Positions 4,322-50,588 of a stretch of 64,000 nt of DNA are shown here, piece by piece. The notes beneath the pieces were generated by a model. It saw only the letters and a program-made list of their open reading frames with translations. It made no database searches and was not told the DNA's origin. Each line of letters begins with the position of its first letter. Positions within the stretch are counted from its first letter, which is position 1. The DNA is from Altibacter sp. (GTDB lineage Bacteria > Bacteroidota > Bacteroidia > Flavobacteriales > Flavobacteriaceae), in assembly GCF_019913785.1 (NCBI RefSeq), contig NZ_JAIOHK010000063.1, positions 85,209 through 149,208 on the forward strand, read 5' to 3'. The translations under genes were made by a program, and so were the position numbers.

Positions 4322-4325
4322 TAAC

Positions 4326-4964: not shown

Positions 4965-4972
4965 CCGATGTT

Positions 4973-14589: not shown

Positions 14590-14675
14590 GACATCCGGTT
14601 GATATTCCAAGTTGCGAAATAGGATTTGGATGCTATTTTCATAACTTGCCGGATACCCCAAATAGTTAGTACCCG

Positions 14676-16733: not shown

Positions 16734-16775
16734 ATATAGCATGAGCGTGAAAAAACCATTCAATTTTGTTTTAGT

Positions 16776-27947: not shown

Positions 27948-28538
27948 TTATTTTTCTTCTTCTTTGTCTCGATTTAAAAATGTGATTTCAATATTGTCTG
28001 CAATAAAAGGTTTTTTTGAAATGCGTTTCAGTATGTTGTTCCAAGTATCAAGTGCATCTCGCTTTATCAACCTTTCCTCCAAGTCCAATTGTTCGTTCTG
28101 TACTTTTATTCGTTTTTCTTTAGCATCGAATTCTGCCTTTTCTGTTTCAGCTTTTAATTTTCTTTTTTCCAAATTCCAATTTTGAATTTTCTGAACAGAT
28201 TGAAAGATAAGCCAAGGAATTCCCGCTGCACTGGCTGCAAGAGGTATAATAACCTCAAGACTTAATGGGGAATTGTGATTAATTGAGTGTAAATAAAGCT
28301 TGTGCTCCCTTTTTAAAGGGCGTCCTTTTCGGTAATAAAAGAATTGAGAAAAATTATAATTTTCATAATCTTCGATTGTTGAAAGAACAAGCAGGTCATT
28401 AAGAAGATTAAGGTCGTAGAGAAAAGAGGAAAGTGTTTCTATTGTGACTTTGTCTTGTCCAGCAATAGTGTACTCCCCTTTTTCTTTAAAATTGAAGCTT
28501 ATTTTAACGTCCGAGTAATAGTAATAATAGTAATACAT
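27948..28538 (-). CDS. Membrane-associated coiled-coil hypothetical protein
   Basis: 196 aa. It begins with seven consecutive tyrosines (MYYYYYYYSD), encoded by a TAY repeat. A beta-rich N-terminal half follows (KISFNFKEKGEYTIAGQDKVTIETL). One hydrophobic segment sits at about residues 112-130 (SPLSLEVIIPLAASAAGIPWLIF), then a long charged coiled coil (LEKRKLKAETEKAEFDAKEKRIKVQNEQLDLEERLIKRDAL). The layout, a sensor-like head, a membrane segment and a coil, is seen in small cargo genes of mobile islands, but I cannot name a family. It is flanked on both sides by related attC-like repeats. Confidence 0.6.
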   Translation of the reverse strand: MYYYYYYYSDVKISFNFKEKGEYTIAGQDKVTIETLSSFLYDLNLLNDLLVLSTIEDYENYNFSQFFYYRKGRPLKREHKLYLHSINHNSPLSLEVIIPLAASAAGIPWLIFQSVQKIQNWNLEKRKLKAETEKAEFDAKEKRIKVQNEQLDLEERLIKRDALDTWNNILKRISKKPFIADNIEITFLNRDKEEEK

Positions 28539-28550
28539 TCTTTAGATTTT

Positions 28551-28620
28551 AATGCCTGCCAACGGTCTCGTGTATCAGTAGTTGAGTGGTTTAGCAATTA
28601 CTTATAGCCATTGTTAGGCG
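28551..28620 (-). repeat. attC-like imperfect palindrome between two cargo genes
   Basis: On the minus strand the segment starts GCGCCTAACAATGGCTATAA, overlapping the TAA stop of the 247-aa gene, and ends ACCGTTGGCAGGC. The ends are imperfect inverted complements (GCCTAACAATGG against GCCTGCCAACGG). GCCTAAC fits the RYYYAAC end of integron attC sites, while the other end fits GTTRRRY only partly. The stop codon inside the left end is typical of gene cassettes. Confidence 0.45.
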
Positions 28621-29357
28621 CTTTTGTTTATTTTTCTTTTCATTGTTTCGGATAATTTCATCAAATTATCATTCTGTAAACCACTAATAATATTTTTGGA
28701 CAAATCTCTTTCTCCTAAATCCCATCTTCTCTCAAGTTGAATTTGTTCTTCAGTTTTATCAATATTGTAGCAATAGAGATATAAATCAAGTTTATTTTCT
28801 AAAATCGATGAAAAACATTCTAAACAGTTTAAGTAATAATTACTTTTTCTTTTGTTTAAATCAAATCCAATGTATATTATTTTGGTATGTAGTTTCATTA
28901 GCGAACAAGCAGATGCAACTCTATGAATTAATTGATATGGCAAATCTTGTATTTCACTGATTTCTATTTTCAATCCTGTATAGTTGTTTATAATTTCCAA
29001 CCATCCTTCAACTACAAGTCTTTTATTAGAACTATTACTTAACCATTTTTTAACTTTTTCATATGGAGGTTCTGTTCTTTTAGCCTCAATAGCTATGCAG
29101 TCATTCGAATATTCAATCATTAAATCAGTGCAAGAAGGTAAACCTTTACCTTTAACAGCAGATATTTTATATTCAAATATGTAATCAATATCTGTGATAG
29201 AATTTAAGTTTATTAATTCTTTGCTAAGAATCTGATTGTGCTTAAACAAAACTATAAGTGGAATTGTTGACCGTCTCGGAGATTTAAATTCATTTTTATT
29301 AAATTTATTATAAATTAAATCAATCGAATTTATTTCTTGTTTGTTGTAAAAAATCAT
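28614..29357 (-). CDS. PD-(D/E)XK-type nuclease-like hypothetical protein
   Basis: 247 aa. 'GKGLPSCTDLMIEYSNDCIAIEAKRTEPPYEKVKKWL' gives the D...EAK pattern of PD-(D/E)XK nucleases, with a preceding 'SPRRSTIPLIVLF' that I associate, from memory only, with the DUF6946 family. The rest is helical. A restriction-like or DNA-processing role is plausible, given the BREX neighbours, but is not shown. Its stop codon lies in an attC-like repeat, which suggests it is a mobile gene cassette separate from the BREX operon (74-base gap). Confidence 0.6.
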   Translation of the reverse strand: MIFYNKQEINSIDLIYNKFNKNEFKSPRRSTIPLIVLFKHNQILSKELINLNSITDIDYIFEYKISAVKGKGLPSCTDLMIEYSNDCIAIEAKRTEPPYEKVKKWLSNSSNKRLVVEGWLEIINNYTGLKIEISEIQDLPYQLIHRVASACSLMKLHTKIIYIGFDLNKRKSNYYLNCLECFSSILENKLDLYLYCYNIDKTEEQIQLERRWDLGERDLSKNIISGLQNDNLMKLSETMKRKINKSA

Positions 29358-29431: not shown

Positions 29432-29695
29432 CTATTTTAAGAATTCACCAAACTTTTTCAATGCACTTATGTAGGCATTATGACTCTTCTTACCGAATTC
29501 AGATTCATTACCAGTAGGACCATATTTCTCAATGAAATAATCAATATTTTCAGCCACTCTGTTAACTGTTATGTTTTCTCTTTTACAAATTTTTTGAACT
29601 CGTTTCATGTAGTCATAAACTGTAGATGGATTTCCAGAAGGGGTAAATTCGCTATAACCTTGCTGGATTAGATAACACTTAAATCGTTCTAACAT
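29432..29695 (-). CDS. Small helical protein at the end of the BREX operon
   Basis: 87 aa, all helical: 'MLERFKCYLIQQGYSEFTPSG', 'TVYDYMKRVQKICKRENITVNRVAENIDYFIEKYGP' and 'NAYISALKKFGEFLK'. The pattern resembles an isolated SAM-like core-binding domain of tyrosine recombinases (an N-terminal 'FK.YL...GYS..T...Y...V..'), but no catalytic domain is attached. It lies 17 bases after brxL and is the last gene on the transcript. A DNA-binding accessory role is a guess. Confidence 0.65.
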   Translation of the reverse strand: MLERFKCYLIQQGYSEFTPSGNPSTVYDYMKRVQKICKRENITVNRVAENIDYFIEKYGPTGNESEFGKKSHNAYISALKKFGEFLK

Positions 29696-29712: not shown

Positions 29713-31725
29713 TTAATGTTTTACAAACGTCACTTCACAAGCCTTACAGAGCCTCTTTTCTTGTATGTATTCATTAATATCATACCAACCGCCTGTTTTT
29801 TGCCAAATGTCAAGACCTCGACCTAAAATAACCTTCCAGCCATTATCCATAACAATAGAACGGTCATGAATAAAATCATCAAATTCATAAGTAAAAATAA
29901 TGCCTAATGACTCCAAAGAATAAGTCATCTGTTCAAAAGCATCCTTAGCTTCTGCAACATAATCTTCTACATTACTTGTAACCAGATGTAATTTAACTTC
30001 AGAATCAGGGTCTTTCTTTTCTGAAATTAGTTTTGCCAATTCCATAAAATTTCTAAGCTGATAAGGCAACCGCACATATGGGTCTACTATTTTTATATCT
30101 GATGCTCCAAGAAGATAAGCTCCAAATAGCACATCATATGAAATTCCAGATTGATTGTCCCTAACAATCTTTTGCCCTTCTTGTAATTCAATTTTAGTTT
30201 CTTTCAGTGAAGCAATAGACATAACCGACCTATCATTTTCTTGATTTACATAAAGCTTTTTTATAGGCTCTCCAAACTCGAGGACCTCTAGTGTTTCAAT
30301 AGTTATTATTTCACCTGAATCTTTACAGCTATAACTAAAATCAACTTCTTCAAAGGTTTCATCCATTTTGTAAAGTTGTTCCTTCACTCTTTTTCGACTT
30401 TCAACGGCAAAATCTAAAAGTTCTCGCGCGTTTTCTTGGTTTATTTCGCCATGAGGATAAATTACTTTTGATAACCCAGCATAAGTTTTTGCAATGGCTG
30501 TTTTATCTCTGGTCGTAATAGAATCAGATAATTCAAAATAATGTGAATAATCATGTGTCCTGTCTTCTTTTCGCAATTCCTTTAATACTTCGGCTAAGTA
30601 GTCCACAATAAATCCATAGTCACTCGTGAACATTTCATTTCTTAATTTCTGCACTTCCCACCCTGGCAAATAACCATGCATTCTATCCAAGAATGCAGTA
30701 TCATAATAATCTTTCGGTAAGGCATCAAATAAGTCACTGTGTTTTAACATATAGGGTACAGAACGGTCTGTATTTCCCACAAAAACCATAGATGCAGAAG
30801 CACCATAAACCTCTGTTCCTCTGGAGAATGATTTATTAGCCATGTAATTTTTCATAATATCTACTAGACCTCTATCAGTTCTTTTTGTTTTTCCTGCAAA
30901 TTCATCATACGCCACAACATCCCAATATCCAACTAATCCAATCTCTCCAGAACTATTATTTACAAATAACTTTGCCTTAGAAACTTCACCACCAGAAATA
31001 AGGATTCCATGAGGTGACATTTCAGAGAAAATATGAGACTTACCCGTTCCTTTAGGACCTAATTCAATGAGATTATAGTTGTTTTCCACAAAAGGAACAA
31101 GTCTAGTTAATTGGAGTAATTTTGACCGAAAAGTAAACTCTTCAGGATTCAACCCAATGGTTTGCATTAATACATCAATCCATTCCTCTTTGCTAAATTG
31201 TTTTCTCGCTTCCTTATATTCATTAATATCTATATTAGATACTTGTATAGGCTTAATACTTTCAATGAGCCAAGGAACCATTCCCTTTTCATCACTTGAA
31301 AAATAACCCAAGGTTAGAATACACCAAACACCTCCTGATAATAATTTTTGATGTTCTTTTATAACATTATCTCCAATGGGAATACCTTTTAGACCAAGGT
31401 TTGCAAAAGAAGCTTCATACTGGTCTTTTTGGTCATTAAGTCTAACGGATACCTTATCAATTATTCTATGTGAACCTTTTTCCCTAACCGTAGACTTAAC
31501 TATTTGAGCTTCATCTCGATGAACAAAATGCTGTGATATTATATTTTTTACAGTTTCTACACCTAGCACTATAGTAACCTCATCATCCGTAGCACAGTAC
31601 TGCCCTAAAAGATATTCCAAAACGTATGTTGGAACTATAGCATTGCCCTTTACAGCATTAGTGAGGTCCTTTCTAACAACCTTTCCTCCGAAATACTCAT
31701 TCAATTTTATGTCTAATTCTTTCAT
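29713..31725 (-). CDS. brxL: BREX protein BrxL with an apparent C-terminal MIT_C domain
   Basis: 670 aa. The BrxL core is clear: Walker A 'ELGPKGTGKSHIFSEMSPHG', Walker B 'DVVAYDEFAGK', and the diagnostic 'KSFSRGTEVYGASASMVFVGN' and 'FLDRMHGYLPGWEVQK'. BrxL is a hexameric AAA+ DNA-binding motor needed for BREX defence. Usual descriptions give a Lon-like C-terminal domain; here residues ~520-670 instead read 'GASDIKIVDPYVRLPYQLRNFMEL' and 'IHDRSIVMDNGWKVILGRGLDIW', which matches my memory of the PLD-fold C-terminal domain of human MITD1 (MIT_C). I see no Lon catalytic Ser motif. It is last but one in the operon, 2 bases after pglZ. Confidence 0.9.
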   Translation of the reverse strand: MKELDIKLNEYFGGKVVRKDLTNAVKGNAIVPTYVLEYLLGQYCATDDEVTIVLGVETVKNIISQHFVHRDEAQIVKSTVREKGSHRIIDKVSVRLNDQKDQYEASFANLGLKGIPIGDNVIKEHQKLLSGGVWCILTLGYFSSDEKGMVPWLIESIKPIQVSNIDINEYKEARKQFSKEEWIDVLMQTIGLNPEEFTFRSKLLQLTRLVPFVENNYNLIELGPKGTGKSHIFSEMSPHGILISGGEVSKAKLFVNNSSGEIGLVGYWDVVAYDEFAGKTKRTDRGLVDIMKNYMANKSFSRGTEVYGASASMVFVGNTDRSVPYMLKHSDLFDALPKDYYDTAFLDRMHGYLPGWEVQKLRNEMFTSDYGFIVDYLAEVLKELRKEDRTHDYSHYFELSDSITTRDKTAIAKTYAGLSKVIYPHGEINQENARELLDFAVESRKRVKEQLYKMDETFEEVDFSYSCKDSGEIITIETLEVLEFGEPIKKLYVNQENDRSVMSIASLKETKIELQEGQKIVRDNQSGISYDVLFGAYLLGASDIKIVDPYVRLPYQLRNFMELAKLISEKKDPDSEVKLHLVTSNVEDYVAEAKDAFEQMTYSLESLGIIFTYEFDDFIHDRSIVMDNGWKVILGRGLDIWQKTGGWYDINEYIQEKRLCKACEVTFVKH

Positions 31726-31727
31726 AA

Positions 31728-34223
31728 TTAAAAGTCATCAAAATCATTAGTAAATGAAATATTCAAGGTATAGTAGTACTCTTTGTATTGTTTCCATTTG
31801 GTAGTACCCTCGACAGGTTCTTCTAAAATTAACTTTACTCGTTGATTTTTATACTTACCACTTGCTTTAGAAATTAATTGGAACCGATGTTTGACTTCCC
31901 TCAGCCTTTCACTTCCTTCTATAATGTTAAAATTATACTTAAACATATCACTCAACAACTCACCATCTTCAGCATAAATAGCAGCACGTAGTGACCTTGG
32001 TAATGTATTTTCTGTAGCTAAGTCTGTTTGTATAAAAGCTACTACCAAAATATTGGTGGTAATTCTATCTGTAGATTTGATAATATCTACCTCAACTTTT
32101 GAAGTAGTGTCCTGACGCTTTTTAGACACTTTAACCACAGGAATAACAATTTCCTGTAAGGTAGCTCCACCGTGAACAAATCGTGAACCAGCGCCTTTAA
32201 TTCTAAGTCTATTTATAGATATAGGGATAAGTATATCAGCATCCGAATCTAATCCCAAGCTTTTAGCTGTAAAAGCCTTCGTTGTATTATCTCCTTTTAG
32301 TTTTTCACCAATAATAAACCGTCTATTTTCTTTCCAAATGGTTCCACTATGTCCAGATTCAATAAAGTCACTGTCATCTAATTGACTATGCTGGTAAATA
32401 AAGCCATGGTCCGAAGTAATAATCATATTATTACCGTTCATATTAGCTATCTTTTTCAAAAGTTCCGTTAAATAGTCTAATTCTTTTTCTACAGCATCAA
32501 ACACCTTTTCTTCAGAAACCTTATCATCTCCCGTTTTATCAATTCTATTATGATAAATATAGATGAGGTCATACTGCTTTACAAACTCCCGACCAGTCGT
32601 ACTAGAATTGAAGTTCATAAACTCATCAGCACCTATAGCAACTGCTCTGACTCCTGAATTAGATTGAAGCACGTTTGTTCGTCCTTGAATTCCTGAGCTT
32701 GATTTTCCATCTACAATTATTGAATCCGTTTTAGACTTAAACGATAATTTAGTATGCGGTAATAAAGAAGCCATTCCTAATTGAGTATACGATGGTAAAG
32801 AACCTATCATACTCCCAATTTCTGACTCATACCTATTTTCTGTTTTAAGGCGATTGTTTAATTCTGCACCAATTTCATATCGTAATGCATCTGAAATAAT
32901 CACAAAGACTCTTTGATTTTTTTCAATAAATGGTTGAATATGACTCTTAAAAAATGAACGTTGGCTGTTTTGAGCTGTTGTTGACCACTGCTTTGTTGCA
33001 TCCACATGTTTTTGCCAGTTATTATTATAGTTCAATAACCAGTTATTAGAATAAATTTTCTCAACAGTCTGTGCCAGCTCAGATATTATTTTATTCTGAT
33101 TCGTCTCCCTGTAATTCCATATAAACTTCCTGTAAAGAAGGTCAACTTCATATAACTCTTCAGTGTAGTGTTCTATTCCCTCTTTAAAAGAACTATATAT
33201 AGTGGTACTATATTTCTTAACAAGTTCTATAAATTCAGCGGCTATATTGACACAGTCATAAAAGTGCTTATACTTTGAGAACCAGAATTTGTTTTCTCGA
33301 ATTTTAATATAGTTTTTAATCTTATCTGAAGATATTTCACCAGCAACTATTAATTCATTCAGGTTGTGTATTATTTTACGGTCACATAGTTCAAATAGAT
33401 TGTCATTCATTATGATATCTAGGTCGGCATTACTCAGTTTCGACTCTATATTTAAGTCTAATGCTACTCTAGACGAAACCCTTTGAAATGTTTCCTTAAA
33501 TTGGATTGTATCCTTCCATTGCAATAAAAAGACTCTGGTTTCTTTGCTCAAATCATTTTTTTGACCATAAACAAAGTTTTTGTTAAACACCTCAACAAGA
33601 AAATCATAAATAGTGGGGTTTTCAGTAGTATAGTTAAACTGGTGCTTAATTTTACCCCAGTAATATTTCTTCAGATTAAAGCGTTCTAAGTTTTTATCAA
33701 ATTTATCATTTCCATCAATAAAATTAGTACTATGGGATTGAATAAATGTGTTGAGGTTAACAAAATCAGTATTAAAAACAACTGCCAGCATTTTACCTCT
33801 AATATCCTCATGTTCATCTCCATCTCCTAAAAGCTCTTTTAGTTTTGCCTTTCGTTCTTTCGATTTAAAGAATTCAATATGCTCTGCTACAAGCTCTTTA
33901 AGATGATACCCTAAACCTAACTCTTGCAAGAACATAGCTTCTTGGTCTGTATGGAAGGTATAGTGAGCTAATTCTAAATCCAACAACCAATTATCCTCGG
34001 GTGCTGGTTTTGGTCCAGTGAAGTAAAGAAGATACTTCTTGTCGGGATTATCTTTATACACTTTGTATTTCACTTCAAATTCATTGCCTTGAACTCTAAT
34101 TTTTTCAAAACCACTTTCTTCTAGAGTCTCAAACTCTTCCTTCAATTCTGACATAGTATCGTACCAAAATATAATTCTGTTAGACTTGAATTTTGTCGAT
34201 ATGGATTCTTGGATTTTATTCAT
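31728..34223 (-). CDS. pglZ: BREX phosphatase-like protein PglZ
   Basis: 831 aa, normal for type 1 PglZ. The alkaline-phosphatase-fold core is visible: 'RVFVIISDALRYEIGAEL' (metal ligand Asp and the following RYE), 'YDLIYIYHNRIDKTGD' and 'NNMIITSDHGFIYQHSQ' (metal-binding SDHGF). A helical N-terminal half binds partners in other systems, and a C-terminal beta domain follows. PglZ is required both for BREX methylation and for phage exclusion. Its start overlaps the previous gene by 8 bases, so the inserted accessory genes are translated in line with it. Confidence 0.95.
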   Translation of the reverse strand: MNKIQESISTKFKSNRIIFWYDTMSELKEEFETLEESGFEKIRVQGNEFEVKYKVYKDNPDKKYLLYFTGPKPAPEDNWLLDLELAHYTFHTDQEAMFLQELGLGYHLKELVAEHIEFFKSKERKAKLKELLGDGDEHEDIRGKMLAVVFNTDFVNLNTFIQSHSTNFIDGNDKFDKNLERFNLKKYYWGKIKHQFNYTTENPTIYDFLVEVFNKNFVYGQKNDLSKETRVFLLQWKDTIQFKETFQRVSSRVALDLNIESKLSNADLDIIMNDNLFELCDRKIIHNLNELIVAGEISSDKIKNYIKIRENKFWFSKYKHFYDCVNIAAEFIELVKKYSTTIYSSFKEGIEHYTEELYEVDLLYRKFIWNYRETNQNKIISELAQTVEKIYSNNWLLNYNNNWQKHVDATKQWSTTAQNSQRSFFKSHIQPFIEKNQRVFVIISDALRYEIGAELNNRLKTENRYESEIGSMIGSLPSYTQLGMASLLPHTKLSFKSKTDSIIVDGKSSSGIQGRTNVLQSNSGVRAVAIGADEFMNFNSSTTGREFVKQYDLIYIYHNRIDKTGDDKVSEEKVFDAVEKELDYLTELLKKIANMNGNNMIITSDHGFIYQHSQLDDSDFIESGHSGTIWKENRRFIIGEKLKGDNTTKAFTAKSLGLDSDADILIPISINRLRIKGAGSRFVHGGATLQEIVIPVVKVSKKRQDTTSKVEVDIIKSTDRITTNILVVAFIQTDLATENTLPRSLRAAIYAEDGELLSDMFKYNFNIIEGSERLREVKHRFQLISKASGKYKNQRVKLILEEPVEGTTKWKQYKEYYYTLNISFTNDFDDF

Positions 34224-36411
34224 TGGACTGGATGTAGGTAATAAATATTCTAATTACTTCATTAATCTTTTGAGCACCAAAACCTTTTATTTTATCTAGT
34301 CTTTTTCCCTCAGCCAATAGACGCTCAAATTCGTGCTTCTTACTACCTATCCCCATATCTGGGTTTGCCTTTAATTCCTCATTAAATTGATTGAAACTAG
34401 TTTCTATTAAAGAAACCCAGTCAGGTCTTTTCCCAATTAAATCATCTTGTATAATTAAATCCATGAACCCTAGTTTATTGCTAGAATCTCTACCGTTTTT
34501 AATTTCTGGGTCAACAACAACTGAACCTTTTGAATTTGTATCCTCTCCCTGTTCTGGAGTTTGGAAGATATCCAACTGCTCACTTTTATTAATCGATGAT
34601 TTTGTGTAATCTTTAATTTGATTAGTTTCATAAGAAGGTTGCTCTTCTTCTATAGAATTTTCCTTGCTCTGTTCTCGGTTTATTCGCTCAGCATCTATTT
34701 TCCATTTCGGTTTGGTTGGCATTGGTTTCTTTTCTCCAAAGGTTTCTATATAAGCTTTCAATCCATTTTGGTCAATTTCTTGATTAAATATTGTCTTGTT
34801 TATATACCTTGTGACTAATGAAAGTTTTTCATCATCTGACGTTAATGACTCCATCAGTATTTTAGAAATATTTGCATATCCATATGCAGCACCCCAAATA
34901 CCAAAAGCAAGACCGTAATGATAGAATTTATTTCTATCCATAAAATCTTGTAGTTTTTCCATTTCTGAATAACGTGAGAGGAAACAAGCCAGTGATTTAA
35001 GCGCATTGTCTTCTGATTCATTTATTTTGAATCCTACACCAACCGTTATAAGGCTTTTATATAGCTTTCTCAGGAATATTACACTTTCATGCTTCTCACC
35101 TTTAGAGCTTTTAACTAAAGTTGCCACGTTTTGAATGATACCTTGTCTACACTGTGCAATTTCATCAGTTGAAGATAGTTCAACTCTGCTGAGAACTTCA
35201 TTAACTATAAGACGGTAAACTAAATTCTCATCTTCACTAATCTCATTGAACGTTGTTTTAACTTCTGTTAAGCCTTCATTTATATTAATGTTGATACTAT
35301 CTAATGCGTTTTCTCTCGCTATAATCGATTTGTAATCTCTAATTTTATTATTAATAATAGAGGTGTACCTATCAAAATTATCATTTAAACTTTTATAATT
35401 CTCCAAAGAAGAATTATCTAAAAATTCATTTACATTATCAATCAAGACTTCCAGTAATTCATCAATGGTGTACAAGGAATTATCTCTGCTTTTTATGAAA
35501 TCGGAAACTAATGAATACACATTTATCCTAGTGCTTTGATATTGAAGCTTGTTTAAGATTTCAATGTCGTTTTTATCAGCATTAAAACTTTTTTGGATTA
35601 AATTATCTATGTCTGATTGTTCGAATGCGACAAATAAAAATTTTATTCTCTCAGTAATTTCAACTAAATGAGCTATTTTCTTTTTTGTTGAAGTATAATC
35701 AAATTTGACCTTCTTTGCTTTGTAATTTCTTGTAAGCACAGATAAGTCATTCATTAAAGCCGAAAAGGAATTGATAAATTCTTGGAAATATCTTGACCCT
35801 TCAGCCATTTCTTCAGGTTGTTCTTTTAGCTTTCCAGAAGCATAAGCATAAACAAATCCCTTGAATTTATTTATTTTCTGGTCTCTTAAAATTTCGGATT
35901 GATTACTATTTTTAGCATCTGACAAGTCAGCAATAACTGACTCATTCCAATTGAAAGATTCAATATCAAATTCCTCTAAAACATATATATTATTAGTATA
36001 ATTGTCTACATTTTTAACCTCAATACTCCTTCTAGTACTTGCAATTATTTTTTTCTTCTCCTCTTCAGTTCTTGTTAAGAAAAAACACTCCATCCAATTG
36101 ATATAAATAGACCTATCCGTTTGAATGATATCAATATTATCAATGGATTTGCTTGAATAACTTTCAGATAGATACTTCTCAGGAACACCAACATATAATG
36201 GGTATTCCTCTCTATCACTTCTAATATCAGAAAGCAATGGAACTTTATTATATGCCAGTATAGAATTTTGAAATGGATTGGCGTTAATCCTGTCAAAGCG
36301 CTTAAATCCAAACCCTCTTTTTTCATAGAAAGAGACTGGTGATATACTCTCCGAAGACAGAATATTATTAAAATTCAAACTATTAACGGGTATGTAATAA
36401 TACTTATTCAT
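34216..36411 (-). CDS. Unknown 731-aa BREX-operon protein with an HhH-like C-terminus
   Basis: I do not recognise a family. The N-terminus 'YYYIPVNSLNFNNILSSESISP' begins a beta-rich domain of about 170 residues. A long helical and coiled-coil region follows (about 180-560). Then comes a low-complexity linker (KENSIEEEQPSYETNQ), and a final helical segment has 'KRLDKIKGFGAQKINEVIRI', which fits a helix-hairpin-helix DNA-binding motif. No catalytic motif is apparent. It overlaps pglZ by 8 bases and follows the helicase by 9, so it belongs to the operon. It may bind DNA or scaffold the BREX complex. Confidence 0.75.
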   Translation of the reverse strand: MNKYYYIPVNSLNFNNILSSESISPVSFYEKRGFGFKRFDRINANPFQNSILAYNKVPLLSDIRSDREEYPLYVGVPEKYLSESYSSKSIDNIDIIQTDRSIYINWMECFFLTRTEEEKKKIIASTRRSIEVKNVDNYTNNIYVLEEFDIESFNWNESVIADLSDAKNSNQSEILRDQKINKFKGFVYAYASGKLKEQPEEMAEGSRYFQEFINSFSALMNDLSVLTRNYKAKKVKFDYTSTKKKIAHLVEITERIKFLFVAFEQSDIDNLIQKSFNADKNDIEILNKLQYQSTRINVYSLVSDFIKSRDNSLYTIDELLEVLIDNVNEFLDNSSLENYKSLNDNFDRYTSIINNKIRDYKSIIARENALDSINININEGLTEVKTTFNEISEDENLVYRLIVNEVLSRVELSSTDEIAQCRQGIIQNVATLVKSSKGEKHESVIFLRKLYKSLITVGVGFKINESEDNALKSLACFLSRYSEMEKLQDFMDRNKFYHYGLAFGIWGAAYGYANISKILMESLTSDDEKLSLVTRYINKTIFNQEIDQNGLKAYIETFGEKKPMPTKPKWKIDAERINREQSKENSIEEEQPSYETNQIKDYTKSSINKSEQLDIFQTPEQGEDTNSKGSVVVDPEIKNGRDSSNKLGFMDLIIQDDLIGKRPDWVSLIETSFNQFNEELKANPDMGIGSKKHEFERLLAEGKRLDKIKGFGAQKINEVIRIFITYIQSNE

Positions 36412-36420
36412 AATATAATA

Positions 36421-37473
36421 TTAGAAAGGTAAGTCAAGTGCTTCTTCATCTAGGTCAACAGCTTCAAAAAGTGATTTTGGAATTCCTGACAATAAATCAG
36501 TTAACGAGTCGGAATACAGAACAAATAAATCTTGGTACGTTCTAGTAAGTGCAACATAAAGCGGATTTTCATCTCTTTTCTTTATATTGTAATCTGAACA
36601 CTCAGGAATAAAAACAGCTTCAAACTGAAGCCCCTTAGCACTGTGATAGGTTAAAATTTTTGGGTTTTCACTATGAAAATTAAGTGTAAACTTTGTGTCG
36701 TCGGGCCATGAGATATCATATTTAGCTTCAACTTGAAATTCTTTACCCTTATAATATTCGTCAGCTGCCTTTACCAATTTATTATCTGGTAGTAATATCC
36801 CGACATCGGTATAACCGCGTTCATCTATTGTATCCATAATAAAATCTAGTTGTTGGGACCAATTACTAGCTTTAACTAAAAACGGTTTATTAGCACCTTC
36901 CTTTGTACATCGACTCTCCAATGAGTCTCCTGTCGAGTTAGCATACTCAGCAATTCTTGCAATCTTTTTTGGTAGTCGATGATTTAAAACGAGCTGCTCC
37001 ATGGGTAAAGCTGTGTGATAAGCTATTTGCTCCATGGTCATAAGATTATTTTTTAAGCCTTTATAAATCTGTTGTGCAGAATCACCAAAGAGGATAAAAG
37101 CTTTTTTAGCCGAATTTTGCAATTCTGTTAACTCATCTTTTGTGAAATCTTGAACCTCATCAACTATAATATAATCTGCAGATTTATGACCGTTATTTTT
37201 CCATCGATAATGGTGCATTACTCTGCTTTGTTCAAGTCCTACCTCATCAACACCATCGTTAATGAATTGACGGAGCGCCTTAGTATACACTACAACATAA
37301 TAACTACCTAATTCTGCATCATCTATTTCTCTTGCTTTCCAGAGTGCTAGGACCGTTTTTCCAGAACCAGCACAGCCTTTTACTACAAAAGAGCTGCTCA
37401 TCTTCTTTTGTATAATAGGAGTTTGATAATCGTCTAATTCGGATTCGTTGATGTACCATGCTTCTTTTGCCAT
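36421..37473 (-). CDS. Small UvrD/Rep-like superfamily 1 ATPase
   Basis: 350 aa, half the length of a full UvrD helicase. Motif I is 'VKGCAGSGKTVLALWKA'; motif II 'DYIIVDEVQDFTKDEL'; motif III 'ILFGDSAQQIYKGL'; motif IV-like 'LNHRLPKKIARIAEYAN'; motif V 'LTYHSAKGLQFEAVFIPE'; motif VI 'NPLYVALTRTYQDLFVLYS'. All ATPase motifs are present, but the 1B and 2B insertions that unwind DNA are short or missing. It may act as a translocase or a nuclease partner. It lies 23 bases after the zinc-finger gene and 9 before the unknown 731-aa gene. Confidence 0.85.
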   Translation of the reverse strand: MAKEAWYINESELDDYQTPIIQKKMSSSFVVKGCAGSGKTVLALWKAREIDDAELGSYYVVVYTKALRQFINDGVDEVGLEQSRVMHHYRWKNNGHKSADYIIVDEVQDFTKDELTELQNSAKKAFILFGDSAQQIYKGLKNNLMTMEQIAYHTALPMEQLVLNHRLPKKIARIAEYANSTGDSLESRCTKEGANKPFLVKASNWSQQLDFIMDTIDERGYTDVGILLPDNKLVKAADEYYKGKEFQVEAKYDISWPDDTKFTLNFHSENPKILTYHSAKGLQFEAVFIPECSDYNIKKRDENPLYVALTRTYQDLFVLYSDSLTDLLSGIPKSLFEAVDLDEEALDLPF

Positions 37474-37496
37474 AATAATATTTTTTAACGTATTAA

Positions 37497-37994
37497 CTAT
37501 GTTCTGTTAAATTCAATAAATAAAAAATCCCGAATTCTTTCAGCCTCCACTCGCATTAAATAAAAGTACAACTCCTTATACATTTTCGTTCCACTTTTAC
37601 CTCTAAAAACATTTCCTTTGCTGTCGTCTATGATTGGACCATTTAGTACAAATTGTAACACTTTTGGGTCATCTAAATAAGGAATAATCATCTTATTAAA
37701 AAGCGTCATATAATGTGCTCCCCAAGTACAATCTATAAAATGATTTAGAATATCTACCATCTGTACTTTAATTTCATTAATTATTGAAACTTTTTCTTCA
37801 GCTCCACCTTCTTCTAAAATTTTTATGGCATCCATGGTATCTTGAATGGCGATATCCAATTTTGGACTCATAGGAATATATTCTTTTGTCATTCTACAAT
37901 TCGGATAGTTACTACAACCCCAGAAAAAAGTATAATCTCTTTCTCTAGGAGCATAAAAGACAAGCCTCATTTCATTGCCACAAGAACACTTCAT
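37497..37994 (-). CDS. Topoisomerase-type C4 zinc-finger protein
   Basis: 165 aa. The N-terminus is a single four-cysteine finger (MKCSCGNEMRLVF..WGCSNYPNCRMTKEY), the C..C...(11-20)...C....C pattern of the topoisomerase I C-terminal fingers that bind single-stranded DNA. The remaining 120 residues are helical ('EEKVSIINEIKVQMVDILNHF', 'RGKSGTKMYKELYFYLMRVEAERIRDFLF') and unrecognised. It is encoded 118 bases after the PLD gene and 23 before the helicase. Binding of single-stranded DNA next to a helicase and a nuclease is a reasonable inference. Confidence 0.8.
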   Translation of the reverse strand: MKCSCGNEMRLVFYAPRERDYTFFWGCSNYPNCRMTKEYIPMSPKLDIAIQDTMDAIKILEEGGAEEKVSIINEIKVQMVDILNHFIDCTWGAHYMTLFNKMIIPYLDDPKVLQFVLNGPIIDDSKGNVFRGKSGTKMYKELYFYLMRVEAERIRDFLFIEFNRT

Positions 37995-38112
37995 CTCATA
38001 ATTTATTAATTAATTTTCGTCGTATCTATCCAACCAAACTCCATAACTTATCCTCTTGCTCTTTTATCATTAAAACCCAATTTCATTTTCTTAAAGTTTC
38101 ATTTATTTTGCA

Positions 38113-39219
38113 TTATTCATTAGCTTCTTTATACAAGTAATAATCAAGAATTGCTAAATCATCAATTCCTGTTTCTTTACAGATTTCTATGAAAAACTTA
38201 TTCGTAGCCTTATATTTTTCTCCCTTGGAAATTCTTTGGGGCAATTCAATGCCATATTCATTCAACAAGTCTGCTATTTTATCATTGCTTACACAATATT
38301 TATCAGGGTTATGAAGTGTCAAAATTTTAGAAATGGTTGCAACTCCAACGCCTTTAATATATAAATCACCTTCATAAGCTCTATTGAAACGAATGGCAAC
38401 ATCAATGGTATCATCTGTCAAGACTTGAAGCAATTTCTTGAATCGCTTTTTCTCTTCCTTTAACGTTGGCTTTGGAATGGATATTAGATGACCTAACGCC
38501 CAATTTTCAAAAAAAGCATCAACATCCACTTTATCGAAGTTTGGGAAGTCTAAACTACTTCTTAATTCCTTAACATCTTTCCAACGTGCTTTTGATTCCT
38601 CTTTGTAATTTTTATGATTTCTATATGCCTTCAATTTCTTTATGAGTGCTTCTCTAGAACTCATAATAACATCATTTTCCTTCTCCAATTCCTTCTTAGT
38701 TTCCTTAGCCTCTTTCTCGTCTTGTTTTTTTCTTTCCAAGCGTTCCTTATAGGATTCCTCATATTCACTAATAAAGGTTGAGGTTAAAATGGAGGCTCTT
38801 TCCTTTATCCCATTAAACCATACTATAAGCTCTTTACAAGCTCTTTGACTTTCAACAATAAAGGATAGCTCAATATTTGAAAAAAGCCCACTTCGTGTGG
38901 TGTTTGCAGAACCGACAAAGGCTTTATACTTCCCTTTAGATTTAACAATATAGACCTTAGGATGATAAAATTCTTGTTTAGCAAACATCAAGACCTCGAC
39001 ATCACTAACATACTGTTGTTTATCTAATTCCTTTAGTGCTTTCACTTCAGTAGGCAAATCAATACCTAGGATATAGTGTTCTTTAGCCTTTTTTGGAAGG
39101 TTTTCTTGAATGAAAGTTAATCCTTGATTGGTTAGGAGTGCAACCGCCACCCAAACCTCATCGGCACTTTTTAAAGCCGACTTCAATTCCTTTTGAAGAT
39201 TTTGGGTTATAGTTTTCAT
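38113..39219 (-). CDS. PLD-superfamily nuclease fused to an HhH-type domain
   Basis: 368 aa. Residues 10-135 form a phospholipase-D-type nuclease half: 'ADEVWVAVALLTNQGLTFIQE', then the catalytic motif 'FYHPKVYIVKSKGKYKAFVGSANTTRSGL' (H.K...GS.N). One HKD motif implies action as a dimer, as in BfiI-like nucleases. A charged coiled coil follows (about 165-215). The C-terminal region has 'DLYIKGVGVATISKILTLHNPDKYCVSNDKI', an HhH glycosylase-like pattern that could bind DNA. It overlaps the pglX stop by one base. A DNA-cutting effector in a BREX operon is unusual. Seen: motifs; inferred: activity. Confidence 0.85.
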   Translation of the reverse strand: MKTITQNLQKELKSALKSADEVWVAVALLTNQGLTFIQENLPKKAKEHYILGIDLPTEVKALKELDKQQYVSDVEVLMFAKQEFYHPKVYIVKSKGKYKAFVGSANTTRSGLFSNIELSFIVESQRACKELIVWFNGIKERASILTSTFISEYEESYKERLERKKQDEKEAKETKKELEKENDVIMSSREALIKKLKAYRNHKNYKEESKARWKDVKELRSSLDFPNFDKVDVDAFFENWALGHLISIPKPTLKEEKKRFKKLLQVLTDDTIDVAIRFNRAYEGDLYIKGVGVATISKILTLHNPDKYCVSNDKIADLLNEYGIELPQRISKGEKYKATNKFFIEICKETGIDDLAILDYYLYKEANE

Positions 39220-42200
39220 TATTTAATGGTTGTGGTATCTATCCAATCAAACTTCTTCACCTTGTCTTTAGTTTTTTTATCATTTAAACCAGCTAAAGGA
39301 GCAATAGCTTTACCAAACTTGTTATAATTCACCAATACACCATCATCAAGGTCTATAGCAATACGTTCTGTAGCTAAGGGATACAACACATCCCTTTCGT
39401 ATTCCTGAAGCTCTAAAAGCACTATTCTCAGCTTGTCTTTCTCCTTAGAAGCTTTGGTTTGCTCACTGGAGCTTCCTGTTTCTATAATATGGTCCAGATG
39501 CTCTAAATGTGTGTTGAGTTTTTCTCTATATTCCTTTAGGTATCCATTTAATATTTGGTTTAAGGTATCTGGTGTATAACGATGCATATAAATAAGCACA
39601 TTAAATGACCCTTTTGGTGATGAGAACATCCAATAAATAGGACGTTTCTTATAACGCTTTATATGGTCTGCATAAAAATCCTTTACAAAGTATTTTCGGA
39701 TATCTTTCCCTAGACACTCTTCTACAAAGGCTAGGTTCTTCTCAAAGTTGGGTTTTCCAAAGCTTACCTTTAGGAATTCATAAAAACGATTGACAATATC
39801 ATCCTCAAACCATTCATCATCTAGTATTGGGATAATGTTATCATCATCTGGAAGGAAGGACATGGCATCTTCTGTTTTCTCAACTTTTTTAAGGTAGTCT
39901 TCTAAGGTTTCTCCTTGATTTGCAAGGATTAAACCTTCTTTGTCTAAAGAATAACGTCCAAACATACAACCCACGGCATAACTCATAAATTGAGCAAATA
40001 CCTCTTCAGCATCAAATACCAACTCCCCATTTACAATATCTGTTTCTTCTTTTAAAATAGTAATATCTTTTAACGGTACCTCTGGGGTTAACTCGTCTTG
40101 TAAACCATAAATCTCAATAAACTGTTTGTTAAGCTCTTCTTCATTTTTATGCAATTGGAAGAATTTGTTTTTCCAGTATTGTTGGTATAAATCGTAGGTT
40201 TCTTCAAGGTCTTGACTATCAATACGGATTAATTCATTTTGTAAAAAATCCCATGCTTTTTCTCGTGAGTTCCATTCTTCTTTAGATATGTGAATCGAAT
40301 TTTCTACAATGACATTGGTTGTATCAAAGAAATCACTATTCATATATACAGGAATCTCTTTTACTGTTCCAGAAGTTAAATTTAAGGTTGGCGAGATAAA
40401 TTCAAAGACCTGTTTAATAGTCTTAGAATTCATAAAGGCAAATAAATAGCCAAATTCATTCTCATTTTCTACGAATAATGAATCAGCTGCTTGGTCGAAC
40501 AAAAAATAATCTTCTAAAAGTCTTATTGTATTTGTTCCAGAAGTAATTCTTTTCCAGCTTATTCCTTTCTTAAAATAGTTCTCCTTTTTAGCCATTGCAT
40601 TTAATCGACAGCTGGGGTCCATTCTAATTAATTCCCCATCATCTTTCCAATTAATCAGATGAGTTAAATTACCATACCATTTCCTAGAACTCCCTCCCAT
40701 CTGATAAGGTATCCAATATTGTTCCTCAGACAATTGTGGCATTCTACTCTGTAGCTTATGAGATACCTCAAACCAATTTCGAGTATATTTTGTATTGTTG
40801 CCTGTTTGCATTCCTGTTTTAGGGACGCAGACATTGTGGAATGGTATTGAGTTTTCAAGCACATAGTATTGTTGCTCTGAGAGCCAAAAACCAATTCTAT
40901 TGCTTGGTATTCTTAAAAAGTCCTTTTGATTAGCTTTAAATGAAATTTTTAGACCAGATTCATCTATTAAGGATTCAATTGAAGCCACTTCCTTGTCTTC
41001 TCTATACTTATCAAAATTAATTTTTATAGATGAATCATTTTTTGATTTCAAGAATATATCTCTTATGTCATTAGGATATAAATGCTGAAAATTACGCTTG
41101 TGTAGTTTAAAGTAATACGACTCTTTATCAATTTTTTGATTGCGTATAATAAAAGCTGTTGAACCCCAATCAATACCAAATATTCCTCGTCCCATATGCA
41201 GCAATGAATCAATATGCTTTTCTTTAATTAATTTTTTCCTGAGTTTTTCAAAAGAAGATAAAAATAACCAAGATGGAAGGTTAATCATTCCAAGAATACC
41301 CATTGGATGAAGGGCATTCCATCCAGCTTCCATAAAACATGTCATTAAGTCGGCTTTACTATCTGGATAATTTACTTTAACGTAATTACCTAATTCTTTA
41401 TTCATGTTACCTCCCATATATGGTGGGTTGTCTGCAATACAATGATATTTTTTGGTTAAAGGTATTAACTGGCTTAAGGCACTGGTTAATTGCTGCGAAT
41501 AGCTTTTTAGGAATACATCGGATGTTGTATTAAATTTATTATCAATTTCTGTTATAATTCGTTCAAGCTCACTTAAAGAAGTATGAGGTATAATTAACGA
41601 CCCTAAATTGGTAGCTTGTTGCATGTTTTTTAGGTCATGCAATAATTCATCAGATAAATCTGTTCCAATGCCTATAAATGCTTCTTTGATTTCGTCTGTA
41701 GTGAGTTTTAAATCTTGATAGCATAGAATATTAGGCTTTAGCTCTTTTCTAAATACTCTACGTTGGTAACTTCTGGCTTTCATAAGTAATGCCATACCAG
41801 CTAATTGTGCAGCACGTTCATCTATTTCAAAACCAAAGAGGTTTTTCTCAATGATGAGTTGTGGTATTTCACTGGGATTATAACCTTCTTCTTCATAAAT
41901 CTTGGTCAATAATTCAAAACCATATACCAGAATATGTCCACTACCACAAGCTTGGTCTAACAGTGTAATCTCTTCAACAGAGTTTACCTTTAAATAATTT
42001 TCACTTTCAACTGAGGGTGACTCTATAAAATAGGGCATGTGCTCTCGCAACTTAGAATTAGGTTTATTTTGTAACCATAGTTTACCTACTGTATTTTGCA
42101 CCATATATTCTACAATCCATCGTGGTGTAAACAATTGGGTTGCAGCTGGAATATCTTCTTTTTTCACTTTGCTTTTTGAAGCAAACACCTCATCTTTTTT

Positions 42201-42821
42201 CTCAGAAATATAGAATTGATAAATCCAACCAATAATTTCAACTTCTTGACAATCTTCAATGGTCATGCCATCTCTAATATCTTGTACAATTGAAAATTCA
42301 GATATTAAATCGTCTGGCAACAACAACTCGGTATAATCACTCAACTTTTCAAACAGAAATGGAAAGACTTTGTTGAGATGATTACAAGCTCCAATCAATA
42401 ACTCTTTATAAGCTTCGTTTTGAGGGTTAGCACTTGGTATTTTACCATCCAAGACATCATAAATATGCTGGTTATTTACAGATAATTCATCTGGTATGTT
42501 CCCTTGTTTGGCTTCATCCAAAAGTTCTGGCAAAGTATAACCCTCTTTAGGTGTGACTACTTTTATACCAATGGGCTGGTAATCATTGGCATCCATAAAA
42601 CGCAATGCCATGAGTCTATTAAACCAAGTATAAGCAACTTTATCTATGACTTGTTCCTTACTTGATGCATTGATAGCTTCTTGAAGTTTTCTTAATTGCG
42701 ATGCTTTTTCCCTTAATTCTGCTGAGTCTGTAGTTAATACAAGCTCAAGTTTAGAACCAACGAGTTCCAGTAGTTTTCTACGAGCTTCCTGAGCAAATTT
42801 TTTGAGATGGTTGGTGTTCAT
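39219..42821 (-). CDS. pglX: BREX adenine-specific DNA methyltransferase PglX
   Basis: 1200 aa, standard for type 1 PglX. The SAM-binding motif is 'LLDQACGSGHILVYGFELL' and the catalytic N6-adenine motif is 'CIADNPPYMGGNMN'. A target-recognition region follows with 'QTGNNTKYTRNWFEVSHKL' and 'YWIPYQMGGSSRKWYGNLTHLINW'. PglX methylates an asymmetric site to mark host DNA, and with BrxABC, PglZ and BrxL blocks replication of unmarked phage. The site cannot be predicted by eye. The gene is 6 bases after brxC. No frameshift or phase-variable repeat is visible in the open frame. Confidence 0.96.
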   Translation of the reverse strand: MNTNHLKKFAQEARRKLLELVGSKLELVLTTDSAELREKASQLRKLQEAINASSKEQVIDKVAYTWFNRLMALRFMDANDYQPIGIKVVTPKEGYTLPELLDEAKQGNIPDELSVNNQHIYDVLDGKIPSANPQNEAYKELLIGACNHLNKVFPFLFEKLSDYTELLLPDDLISEFSIVQDIRDGMTIEDCQEVEIIGWIYQFYISEKKDEVFASKSKVKKEDIPAATQLFTPRWIVEYMVQNTVGKLWLQNKPNSKLREHMPYFIESPSVESENYLKVNSVEEITLLDQACGSGHILVYGFELLTKIYEEEGYNPSEIPQLIIEKNLFGFEIDERAAQLAGMALLMKARSYQRRVFRKELKPNILCYQDLKLTTDEIKEAFIGIGTDLSDELLHDLKNMQQATNLGSLIIPHTSLSELERIITEIDNKFNTTSDVFLKSYSQQLTSALSQLIPLTKKYHCIADNPPYMGGNMNKELGNYVKVNYPDSKADLMTCFMEAGWNALHPMGILGMINLPSWLFLSSFEKLRKKLIKEKHIDSLLHMGRGIFGIDWGSTAFIIRNQKIDKESYYFKLHKRNFQHLYPNDIRDIFLKSKNDSSIKINFDKYREDKEVASIESLIDESGLKISFKANQKDFLRIPSNRIGFWLSEQQYYVLENSIPFHNVCVPKTGMQTGNNTKYTRNWFEVSHKLQSRMPQLSEEQYWIPYQMGGSSRKWYGNLTHLINWKDDGELIRMDPSCRLNAMAKKENYFKKGISWKRITSGTNTIRLLEDYFLFDQAADSLFVENENEFGYLFAFMNSKTIKQVFEFISPTLNLTSGTVKEIPVYMNSDFFDTTNVIVENSIHISKEEWNSREKAWDFLQNELIRIDSQDLEETYDLYQQYWKNKFFQLHKNEEELNKQFIEIYGLQDELTPEVPLKDITILKEETDIVNGELVFDAEEVFAQFMSYAVGCMFGRYSLDKEGLILANQGETLEDYLKKVEKTEDAMSFLPDDDNIIPILDDEWFEDDIVNRFYEFLKVSFGKPNFEKNLAFVEECLGKDIRKYFVKDFYADHIKRYKKRPIYWMFSSPKGSFNVLIYMHRYTPDTLNQILNGYLKEYREKLNTHLEHLDHIIETGSSSEQTKASKEKDKLRIVLLELQEYERDVLYPLATERIAIDLDDGVLVNYNKFGKAIAPLAGLNDKKTKDKVKKFDWIDTTTIK

Positions 42822-46328: not shown

Positions 46329-46910
46329 TTATTTTGCTTCTATATTATCAATGTTAAATGCTCTGTAATAATTGTCATCTTTTAATAGACCAAACAGGTT
46401 TAATGAATGACCATCATATTCACCAGGGAAGAACATTACTGTAGGAGCTTCCTTGGCAATATTTTGAAGATTATTCAAAATAGTATGGGACCTGATAAAT
46501 GGATATACTAAACCTACACCTGTTAAAAAGTAAATCTTGGCATTTGACGCTTTAATTTTTTCATCAATATTAGGTATCAGTATTTGATGTATATTTAATG
46601 ACGACTGCAATGCTTTAAGGAACTTGTCCTTAGATTTAGCCTTTTCTACTCTGAACATACGCTCCATACCACCTTTTTCGTCTAATATTTCACACACCAC
46701 ATCGTATAGATTGATTTCAAGGATAGGCACGCCAGCATTATTTAATTTTTTCTTTAGCATTTGGATGGAGTCCATGACGTTTATCTCGTCCATAGCATCA
46801 TAAGGTGAAATAAAAAAAGGTATTTCACCACCTAGACCATCCTTTTGCAAAAACCATCTTGAGGATAGTTTGTCATAAAGCTTTTCAAATTTGTTAACCA
46901 GTTCTACCAT
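46329..46910 (-). CDS. brxB: BREX protein BrxB (DUF1788)
   Basis: 193 aa, normal length. 'SRWFLQKDGLGGEIPFFISPYDA', 'KIYFLTGVGLVYPFIRSHTILNNL' and 'PTVMFFPGEYDGHSLNLFGLL' are the conserved blocks of the DUF1788/BrxB family. It is required for phage exclusion but has no known catalytic activity. The start codon abuts the brxA stop directly, typical of translational coupling. Confidence 0.95.
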   Translation of the reverse strand: MVELVNKFEKLYDKLSSRWFLQKDGLGGEIPFFISPYDAMDEINVMDSIQMLKKKLNNAGVPILEINLYDVVCEILDEKGGMERMFRVEKAKSKDKFLKALQSSLNIHQILIPNIDEKIKASNAKIYFLTGVGLVYPFIRSHTILNNLQNIAKEAPTVMFFPGEYDGHSLNLFGLLKDDNYYRAFNIDNIEAK

Positions 46911-47507
46911 TTAACTTATGTTGTTAATTACTTCATCACTTAACATGAATACTTTAAGCCATTCTTCATTATCACTTACAATGACTTGCACAATTTCAGG
47001 ACTTAAAAGCTGAGGCTGAAGTAACCTCTCTCTAACATCATTTATAATTCCAGCTTGTTCAAGAATCTTAAAGGTGACTTGTCTAATCTTGTACTCTGTT
47101 TGCTCGGTTAGCAATTCCATTTCAGGGTGATATTCAAACTTTCTACGGTAAAAGGAAATGTAATCCCCTTCACTTATTTCATAGTCATAAACTAGTAACT
47201 TTTCTCGAAGTACCTCAACCACAAATTCCCTTATAAATGCATGTGCTTTGCAAACCGACAGAAATGCTAGCTTTTTTCGTGTATTTAAATCACCTGACAT
47301 AAATAATTGAAATTGTTGTTCGGAAAATTGCTTTAAACGCCTTTTTATAGCTACTAATCTACGTTGTCCAGTATTTCGATTACCATCACCAAAATCCACC
47401 ATTTCTATTGGAAGTCTTTTACTGATAGCTTCAGCAACTTTTAGCATTTCATTTTCTCTTAATGAGAAACCAGTAAATGAAAAATTATATTTCTTTGTTT
47501 CTGTCAT
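46911..47507 (-). CDS. brxA: BREX protein BrxA (DUF1819)
   Basis: 198 aa. The DUF1819 pattern is visible in 'YNFSFTGFSLRENEMLKVAEAI', 'QFQLFMSGDLNTRKKLAFLSVCKAHAFIREFVVEVLREKLLVYD' and 'KILEQAGIINDV'. BrxA is a small helical DNA-binding protein at the head of type 1 operons. Its ATG overlaps the stop of the HTH regulator by one base (TAATG on the coding strand), so regulator and brxA are translationally linked. Confidence 0.95.
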   Translation of the reverse strand: MTETKKYNFSFTGFSLRENEMLKVAEAISKRLPIEMVDFGDGNRNTGQRRLVAIKRRLKQFSEQQFQLFMSGDLNTRKKLAFLSVCKAHAFIREFVVEVLREKLLVYDYEISEGDYISFYRRKFEYHPEMELLTEQTEYKIRQVTFKILEQAGIINDVRERLLQPQLLSPEIVQVIVSDNEEWLKVFMLSDEVINNIS

Positions 47508-50273: not shown

Positions 50274-50588
50274 ATGGAAAATCCCTCTATACAAATAGCT
50301 CAAACAATTTTATACCAAATCAAATATTTAGATAGAAGTGCTCTTATGGCATGGGGAGCAAAATCATTTTGCTCTTTATCTGAGAATAAAACTAGAGTTG
50401 GAGGTTTAAGTTTTAAGGTCAATGGTTTGACACATAAAGGTTGGGTAACAATTGAATTAGATTGGTTAGATACATATACAGTAGTTTTCACCAATAGAAA
50501 ACGTGAGATTGTAAAAACCGTTGAAGGTGTATATTATGACATGCTAATAGATGTAATAGATTATATCGAAGGAAAACACGCAGCCTAA
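50274..50588 (+). CDS. Small protein coupled to the serine recombinase
   Basis: 104 aa. 'AQTILYQIKYLDRSALMAWGAKSFCSL' and 'VGGLSFKVNGLTHKGWVTIELDWLDTYTVVFTNRKREIV' describe a small alpha/beta protein of a type often found in phages and mobile elements of Bacteroidetes; it has no name that I know. Its stop overlaps the ATG of the recombinase by one base (TAATG), so translation is coupled. It may be a partner or directionality factor of the recombinase; this is inference from linkage. Confidence 0.7.
   Translation: MENPSIQIAQTILYQIKYLDRSALMAWGAKSFCSLSENKTRVGGLSFKVNGLTHKGWVTIELDWLDTYTVVFTNRKREIVKTVEGVYYDMLIDVIDYIEGKHAA

What the first reader, a model, noticed from the sequence alone, without database searches (positions are those of the whole stretch)
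29713..30165. BrxL with a MITD1-like (MIT_C) C-terminal domain instead of Lon
The last ~150 residues contain 'DPYVRLPYQLRNFMEL', 'IHDRSIVMDNGWKVILGRGL' and a final 'CKACEVTF', which line up with my memory of the PLD-fold C-terminal domain of human MITD1, an ESCRT-III-associated protein. I see no Lon catalytic serine motif. A domain best known from membrane abscission in eukaryotes, fused to a phage-defence AAA+ motor, would be notable. The comparison is from memory.
Basis: partly seen in the sequence, partly recalled or inferred. Interest (0 to 1): 0.75.

Follow-up and report, generated by a model that had tools for sequence, protein, structure and literature searches.

The report
Phage-defence BrxL carrying MITD1-like domain
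A bacterial anti-phage protein (BrxL) really does end in the same folded domain as the human cell-division protein MITD1; this type of BrxL is already known and common, but the human domain turns out to be closest to one group of these bacterial proteins, which hints that it came from phage defence.

Summary
Confirmed. The 670-aa BrxL at 29713-31725(-) carries Pfam MIT_C at residues 527-669 (E=1e-40) and no Lon domain. Among solved structures its C-terminus matches only human MITD1 by sequence. The predicted C-terminal structure (pLDDT 93) superposes on MITD1 (TM 0.79/0.87, 2.0 A), then on other phospholipase-D folds. The gene sits in an intact type-1-like BREX operon.

It is not a rarity. In a Bacteroidota sample, 25 of 46 BrxL ATPase genes carry it, and PADLOC models it. 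A 2026 paper reports 1030 of 2913 type-1 BrxLs with an "HKD/HRD endoDNase" there, apparently this domain. "Membrane abscission" reflects MITD1's history, not evidence about BrxL.

What the held literature lacks is the MITD1 link. A BrxL subfamily (clade B, in BREX loci) is 47-52% identical to human MITD1. That is closer than it is to the window's BrxL group (31%), and MITD1 plus clade B gets 100/99 support. MITD1's domain may therefore descend from BrxL, though the tree is unrooted and holds one eukaryotic sequence.

Function: the pocket (D548, R552, Q556, H620, R622, R636, D639, R658) is invariant or nearly so. The HKD lysine is arginine and its aspartate varies, so nuclease activity is plausible but unproven.

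The parts
29713..31725 (-). brxL gene, 670 aa
   Evidence: PADLOC BrxL PDLC02508 full length 995 bits; Pfam BrxL_N, BrxL_ATPase, MIT_C
31303..31698 (-). BrxL_N domain, residues 10-141
   Evidence: PF20442 E=2e-49
30334..31272 (-). MCM-like AAA+ ATPase domain, residues 152-464
   Evidence: PF13337 E=3e-133; aligns to solved BrxL 8emc
30193..30267 (-). flexible linker, residues 487-511
   Evidence: pLDDT < 50 in the full-length model
29719..30147 (-). MIT_C / MITD1-like PLD-fold domain, residues 527-669
   Evidence: PF16565 E=1e-40; AF2 pLDDT 93; Foldseek to MITD1 4a5z E=1e-16, TM 0.79/0.87
30070..30084 (-). conserved DPYxR motif, residues 548-552 (D548, R552)
   Evidence: D548 101/101, R552 98/101 in BrxL C-termini; also in human MITD1
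29845..29868 (-). variant HKD motif HxRx4D, residues 620-627 (HDRSIVMD)
   Evidence: H620 97/98, R622 98/98, D627 only 62/100 (35 N)
29809..29823 (-). GRGLD motif, residues 635-639, in the place of the PLD GSxN motif
   Evidence: R636 97/100, D639 98/100; also in MITD1
31728..34223 (-). pglZ (BREX-1 type A)
   Evidence: TIGR02687 729 bits
34216..36411 (-). 731-aa protein of unknown family inserted in the BREX operon
   Evidence: no significant Pfam, PADLOC or NCBIfam hit
36421..37473 (-). UvrD-like SF1 helicase-related gene, 350 aa
   Evidence: UvrD_C, Viral_helicase1
37497..37994 (-). 165-aa topoisomerase-type zinc-ribbon protein
   Evidence: PF01396 3e-5, below cut-off
38113..39219 (-). separate PLD-family putative nuclease with HxK...GSxN (HPK...GSAN)
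   Evidence: PLDc_2 2e-10, RE_NgoFVII 7e-9; sequence
39219..42821 (-). pglX adenine methyltransferase
   Evidence: NF033452 1244 bits
42828..46322 (-). brxC
   Evidence: NF033441 1054 bits
46329..46910 (-). brxB
   Evidence: PF08747 2e-45
46911..47507 (-). brxA
   Evidence: PF08849 1e-32

Best explanation
The gene is a BREX BrxL whose inactive Lon-like C-terminal domain is replaced by a PLD-fold (MIT_C) domain homologous to human MITD1; I hold this identity at about 0.98. Most likely mechanism: the N-terminal and MCM-like AAA+ domains assemble into a ring on non-self dsDNA, as in Acinetobacter BrxL, and place several C-terminal PLD domains around the DNA. The conserved His/Arg/Arg/Asp pocket then binds the phosphodiester backbone and cleaves or nicks phage DNA. 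Shown here: homology, fold, domain order, conserved residues, intact operon. Inferred: ring assembly, DNA as the ligand, and catalysis. The confidence given is for the nuclease mechanism as a whole.
For: MIT_C E=1e-40; a bacterial-only profile finds MITD1 at 3e-42; model pLDDT 93 matches MITD1, then PLD-superfamily enzymes including nucleases. H620 and R622 are invariant or nearly so, as are D548, R552, Q556, T583, R636, D639 and R658, across Bacteroidota, Pseudomonadota, Actinomycetota and a Woesearchaeota record, which argues for a working pocket. BrxL_N and the ATPase align over full length with the DNA-binding ring BrxL 8emc (PMC10164562). PglZ lies immediately upstream in nearly all loci that hold that flank. 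PMC12839542 independently proposes an HKD-type endoDNase at this position in 1030 BrxLs.
Against: The HKD lysine is always Arg here; the equivalent K-to-R change in PLD2 (K758R) is used as a catalytically inactive form (PMC4619593). The HKD Asp is Asn in about a third of BrxLs, and the GSxN serine position is Arg636. MITD1 keeps the same pocket without a known nuclease activity (my knowledge). No biochemical test of a MIT_C-type BrxL was found, and most of the BREX literature concerns Lon-type BrxL.
Confidence: 0.5

Rival explanations
1. The C-terminal domain is a non-catalytic replacement for the Lon-like domain: it mediates tail-to-tail dimerisation of BrxL rings and/or grips the DNA backbone through the conserved basic pocket, without cutting.
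For: The Lon-like domain it replaces lacks protease motifs and mediates dimerisation of rings (PMC10164562). The HKD Lys is Arg, the Asp varies, and Ser is replaced by Arg. PglZ already supplies a metal-dependent nuclease in type-1 BREX (PMC12205998 title).
Against: A pure scaffold would not need a near-invariant His, several near-invariant Arg and two near-invariant Asp from archaea to human.
Confidence: 0.33
2. The domain binds membrane lipids, as reported for MITD1, and tethers BrxL to the inner membrane near injected phage DNA.
For: Strong homology and fold match to MITD1; the title of Hadders et al. 2012 reports that the MITD1 PLD fold binds membranes (reference list).
Against: No ESCRT-like gene was identified among the BREX genes examined; the conserved pocket is polar rather than a known lipid motif; the rest of BrxL is a soluble DNA-binding ring. 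Membrane binding was not tested here.
Confidence: 0.1
3. The MIT_C match is a chance or artefactual annotation and the domain is a diverged Lon-like domain.
For: None found; NCBI names these proteins 'Lon protease-like'.
Against: Pfam 1e-40, PDB sequence match, fold match TM 0.79/0.87, and no Lon hit. Lon-type and MIT_C-type tails were mutually exclusive in the 158 BrxL ORFs tallied.
Confidence: 0.01

Closest known systems
BrxL with C-terminal 'HKD/HRD endoDNase' (Rakesh & Krishnan 2026, PMC12839542, citing Li et al. 2025)
   Same: Same N-terminal, ATPase and C-terminal layout, same HxR motif, replacement of the LonP domain, type-1 BREX.
   Different: The main text does not contain the word MIT, and MITD1 is absent from it. 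It calls the motif HRD; our alignment shows the D is not conserved and R636 replaces Ser.
Lon-type BrxL (Acinetobacter, PDB 8emc/8emh)
   Same: Residues 2-472 align with E about 1e-150.
   Different: C-terminal domain is an inactive Lon-like fold, not PLD; no alignment beyond residue 472.
Human MITD1 C-terminal PLD domain (PDB 4a5z, 2ymb)
   Same: Same fold; about 33% mean identity to the window's BrxL group, 47-52% to BrxL clade B; all pocket residues conserved.
   Different: Fused to an ESCRT-III-binding MIT domain in eukaryotes; the HKD Asp position is Asn; cellular role is cytokinesis.
PLD-superfamily nucleases (Nuc, BfiI, DrmC, NgoFVII; the PLD protein in this operon)
   Same: PLD fold, His of HxK at the same place.
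   Different: They keep HxK and usually GSxN; BrxL MIT_C has HxR and GRGLD.

Membership tests
BrxL | BrxL_N plus BrxL_ATPase domains | tested here: met
   PF20442 2e-49, PF13337 3e-133; PDLC02508 full length
BrxL | Encoded in a BREX operon next to pglZ | tested here: met
   brxA, brxB, brxC, pglX, pglZ, brxL in order
Lon-type BrxL | C-terminal Lon-like domain | tested here: not met
   No match to 8emc beyond residue 472; TIGR02653 below its cut-off; no Lon fold among the listed fold matches
MIT_C (PF16565) domain family | Profile match above the gathering score over the whole model | tested here: met
   139 bits vs 25, model positions 1-142
MIT_C (PF16565) domain family | MITD1-like PLD fold | tested here: met
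   Foldseek 1.3e-16, TM 0.79/0.87
MITD1 (eukaryotic protein) | N-terminal MIT domain binding ESCRT-III tails | tested here: not met
   N-terminus is BrxL_N; no MIT domain hit
Catalytic HKD nuclease | HxK(x)4D motif | tested here: not met
   HxR(x)4D in the window, Arg invariant, D/N variable across BrxLs
Catalytic HKD nuclease | Phosphodiesterase activity | not testable with these tools
   Needs biochemistry

The most novel reading that the evidence does not exclude
The PLD domain of the eukaryotic cytokinesis factor MITD1 descends from the C-terminal domain of a bacterial BREX phage-defence protein (BrxL clade B), acquired by horizontal transfer and fused to a MIT domain, with the ancestral ligand/active-site pocket kept intact in humans.
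Probability: 0.6. Interest if true: 0.75.

Novelty: new member of a known kind. Interest (0 to 1): 0.48.

Why it matters
The BrxL variant itself is catalogued, but identifying its tail with MITD1 links two fields that do not cite each other in the held library. It questions the published assumption that the 'HRD' motif is an active HKD nuclease. It gives a concrete list of residues to mutate in both a phage-defence protein and a human abscission factor. It also suggests an ESCRT cofactor domain of bacterial immune origin.

Tried and rejected
Lon-domain reading: rejected. Chance or low-complexity match: rejected by profile and fold. Rarity: rejected (and PMC12839542). Stand-alone MIT_C proteins in prokaryotes: only one strong non-BrxL architecture found (MIT_C plus Sel1 repeats, L023); the weak hits L026 and L027 lie beside ABC-ATPase-like ORFs and are too divergent to root the tree. 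Phage-encoded copies: none in the annotated phage collection. AU tests of alternative MITD1 placements were borderline (p = 0.051 and 0.055), so the placement is not claimed as proven. The Menshen paper (Li et al. 2025) cited for HKD-BrxL is not held, so its data could not be read. ATPase tree: C-terminal type changes about 6 times, including truncated or split genes, with long branches; one or two origins of the fusion cannot be told apart.

Full report
Observation. The ORF at 29713-31725 (minus strand, 670 aa) is BrxL. Pfam gives BrxL_N (10-141, 2e-49), BrxL_ATPase (152-464, 3e-133) and MIT_C PF16565 (527-669, 1e-40; 139 bits against a cut-off of 25). Against PDB sequences the only matches are Acinetobacter BrxL, over residues 2-472, and human MITD1 (4a5z, 2ymb; about 1e-17), over residues 518-653. 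No Lon-domain family matches.

Fold. An AlphaFold model of residues 496-670, from an alignment of 83 BrxL C-termini, has mean pLDDT 93. Foldseek puts MITD1 first (E 1e-16, TM 0.79/0.87, rmsd 2.0 A), followed by phospholipase D superfamily members, and no Lon fold appears in the 50 matches listed. A profile built only from prokaryotic BrxL tails finds MITD1 at 3e-42. The full-length model is weaker (pLDDT 81) and has a low-confidence linker at 487-511.

Surroundings. The gene ends an intact BREX operon: brxA 46911-47507, brxB 46329-46910, brxC, pglX, four inserted genes (PLD-family protein, zinc-ribbon protein, UvrD-like protein, unknown 731 aa), pglZ and brxL. In the related loci that hold this flank, pglZ is nearly always directly upstream of brxL.

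How common. Of 396 Bacteroidota genomes, 46 BrxL ATPase genes match at E < 1e-90, and 25 carry MIT_C in the same frame. One further strong MIT_C lies in a Sel1-repeat protein (L023). Strong matches were found in 7/399 genomes of the Methylophaga phylum, 5/199 of the Actinomycetota centre's phylum and 1/194 of the Woesearchaeota centre's phylum. Among 158 BrxL ORFs collected, 141 had MIT_C tails, 12 Lon-type and 5 were short, none with both; this set was gathered largely with MIT_C-type queries and is not a census. PADLOC's PDLC02508 covers the whole protein including the tail, and one public plasmid record already names a split copy 'MIT C-terminal domain-containing protein'. Rakesh and Krishnan (2026, PMC12839542) count 1030 of 2913 type-1 BrxLs with a C-terminal HKD endoDNase carrying an HRD motif. 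That is very probably this domain: our HDRSIVMD fits HxRx4D. Their main text does not contain the word MIT, and a search for papers holding MITD1 with BrxL or 'BREX system' found none with MITD1. PMC12715929 lists PF16565 among BREX Pfams.

Residues. Over about 100 BrxL C-termini: D548 101/101, R552 98, Q556 99, T583 99, H620 97/98, R622 98/98, W630 99, R636 97, D639 98, R658 97, while position 627 (the D of HKD) is D in 62 and N in 35. Every one of the near-invariant positions is conserved in human MITD1, which has N at 627. So this is not a textbook HKD: Lys is Arg and the GSxN region is GRGLD. K758R is used as catalytically inactive PLD2 (PMC4619593), so the published inference that HRD preserves activity needs testing. 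The invariance argues that some pocket function, catalytic or phosphate-binding, is retained in both BrxL and MITD1.

MITD1 and a second BrxL group. In a MIT_C domain tree, MITD1 joined a small divergent BrxL group, 'clade B'. I enlarged it with plasmid and IMG/VR records. In the careful tree of 79 rows, MITD1 plus 16 clade-B BrxLs has support 100/99. Mean identities are MITD1-B 47%, MITD1-A 33%, A-B 31%, A-A 44% (minimum 28%). BLAST identity of MITD1 to clade B reaches 50-52% over 143 residues, and a single clade-B tail finds MITD1 at 1.7e-40. MITD1 shares 19 group-specific residues with B and 3 with A. Clade-B members carry the BrxL ATPase, BrxL_N where the frame reaches it, and MIT_C, and lie in BREX loci with brxE, brxA, brxB, brxC and pglZ on Thioflavicoccus and Hymenobacter plasmids (in the first, the brxA position is annotated DUF1819 and the methyltransferase only as DNA methyltransferase). 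Because A contains deeper divergences than MITD1-B, the simplest reading is that the MITD1 domain is nested inside BrxL diversity. Limits: the tree is unrooted, holds one eukaryotic sequence, and the AU tests of alternative placements are borderline (p about 0.05). No held paper mentions MITD1 with horizontal gene transfer.

Mechanism. From homology to 8emc (PMC10164562), the N-terminal and ATPase domains should form a ring on dsDNA, with the C-terminal domains at the ring-ring interface. I favour a PLD-type cut or nick of phage DNA by the C-terminal domain (0.5), over a non-catalytic DNA or ring clamp (0.33) and membrane tethering (0.1). None of these is tested by experiment here.

Verdict. 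The protein is an ordinary member of a known BrxL variant, and the new element is the close kinship of human MITD1 with one BrxL group.

Noticed in passing
window 34216-39219: Four accessory genes between pglX and pglZ: a PLD-family protein with HxK/GSAN, a zinc-ribbon protein, a UvrD-like 350-aa protein and a 731-aa protein of no known family. In locus L086 homologues of the UvrD-like and 731-aa genes sit together downstream of brxL (about 14476-17345), suggesting a movable two-gene module.
   Followed up: partly
window 28614-29357: 247-aa DUF6946 protein downstream of brxL (5.8e-8), with a sequence that looks nuclease-like.
   Followed up: no
window 27948-28538: ORF beginning MYYYYYYY (seven Tyr codons in a row); no family match.
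   Followed up: no
window 29432-29695: 87-aa ORF resembling the N-terminal SAM-like domain of phage integrases (0.0035, below cut-off), possibly an integrase remnant next to brxL.
   Followed up: no
window 50588-51307: Serine recombinase/resolvase gene (3e-21) upstream of the BREX operon.
   Followed up: no
L023:790-3414: Non-BrxL MIT_C protein fused to 11 Sel1 repeats in a Bacteroidota genome.
   Followed up: partly
L165 (Hymenobacter sp. BRD67 plasmid, 2977-5018): BrxL gene split into several annotated ORFs with a separate MIT C-terminal ORF; probably a decayed copy.
   Followed up: partly
L205, L206: Clade-B BrxLs occur in BREX loci that also carry brxE, which I recall as a type-6 marker, so these look like mixed-type BREX loci.
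   Followed up: partly
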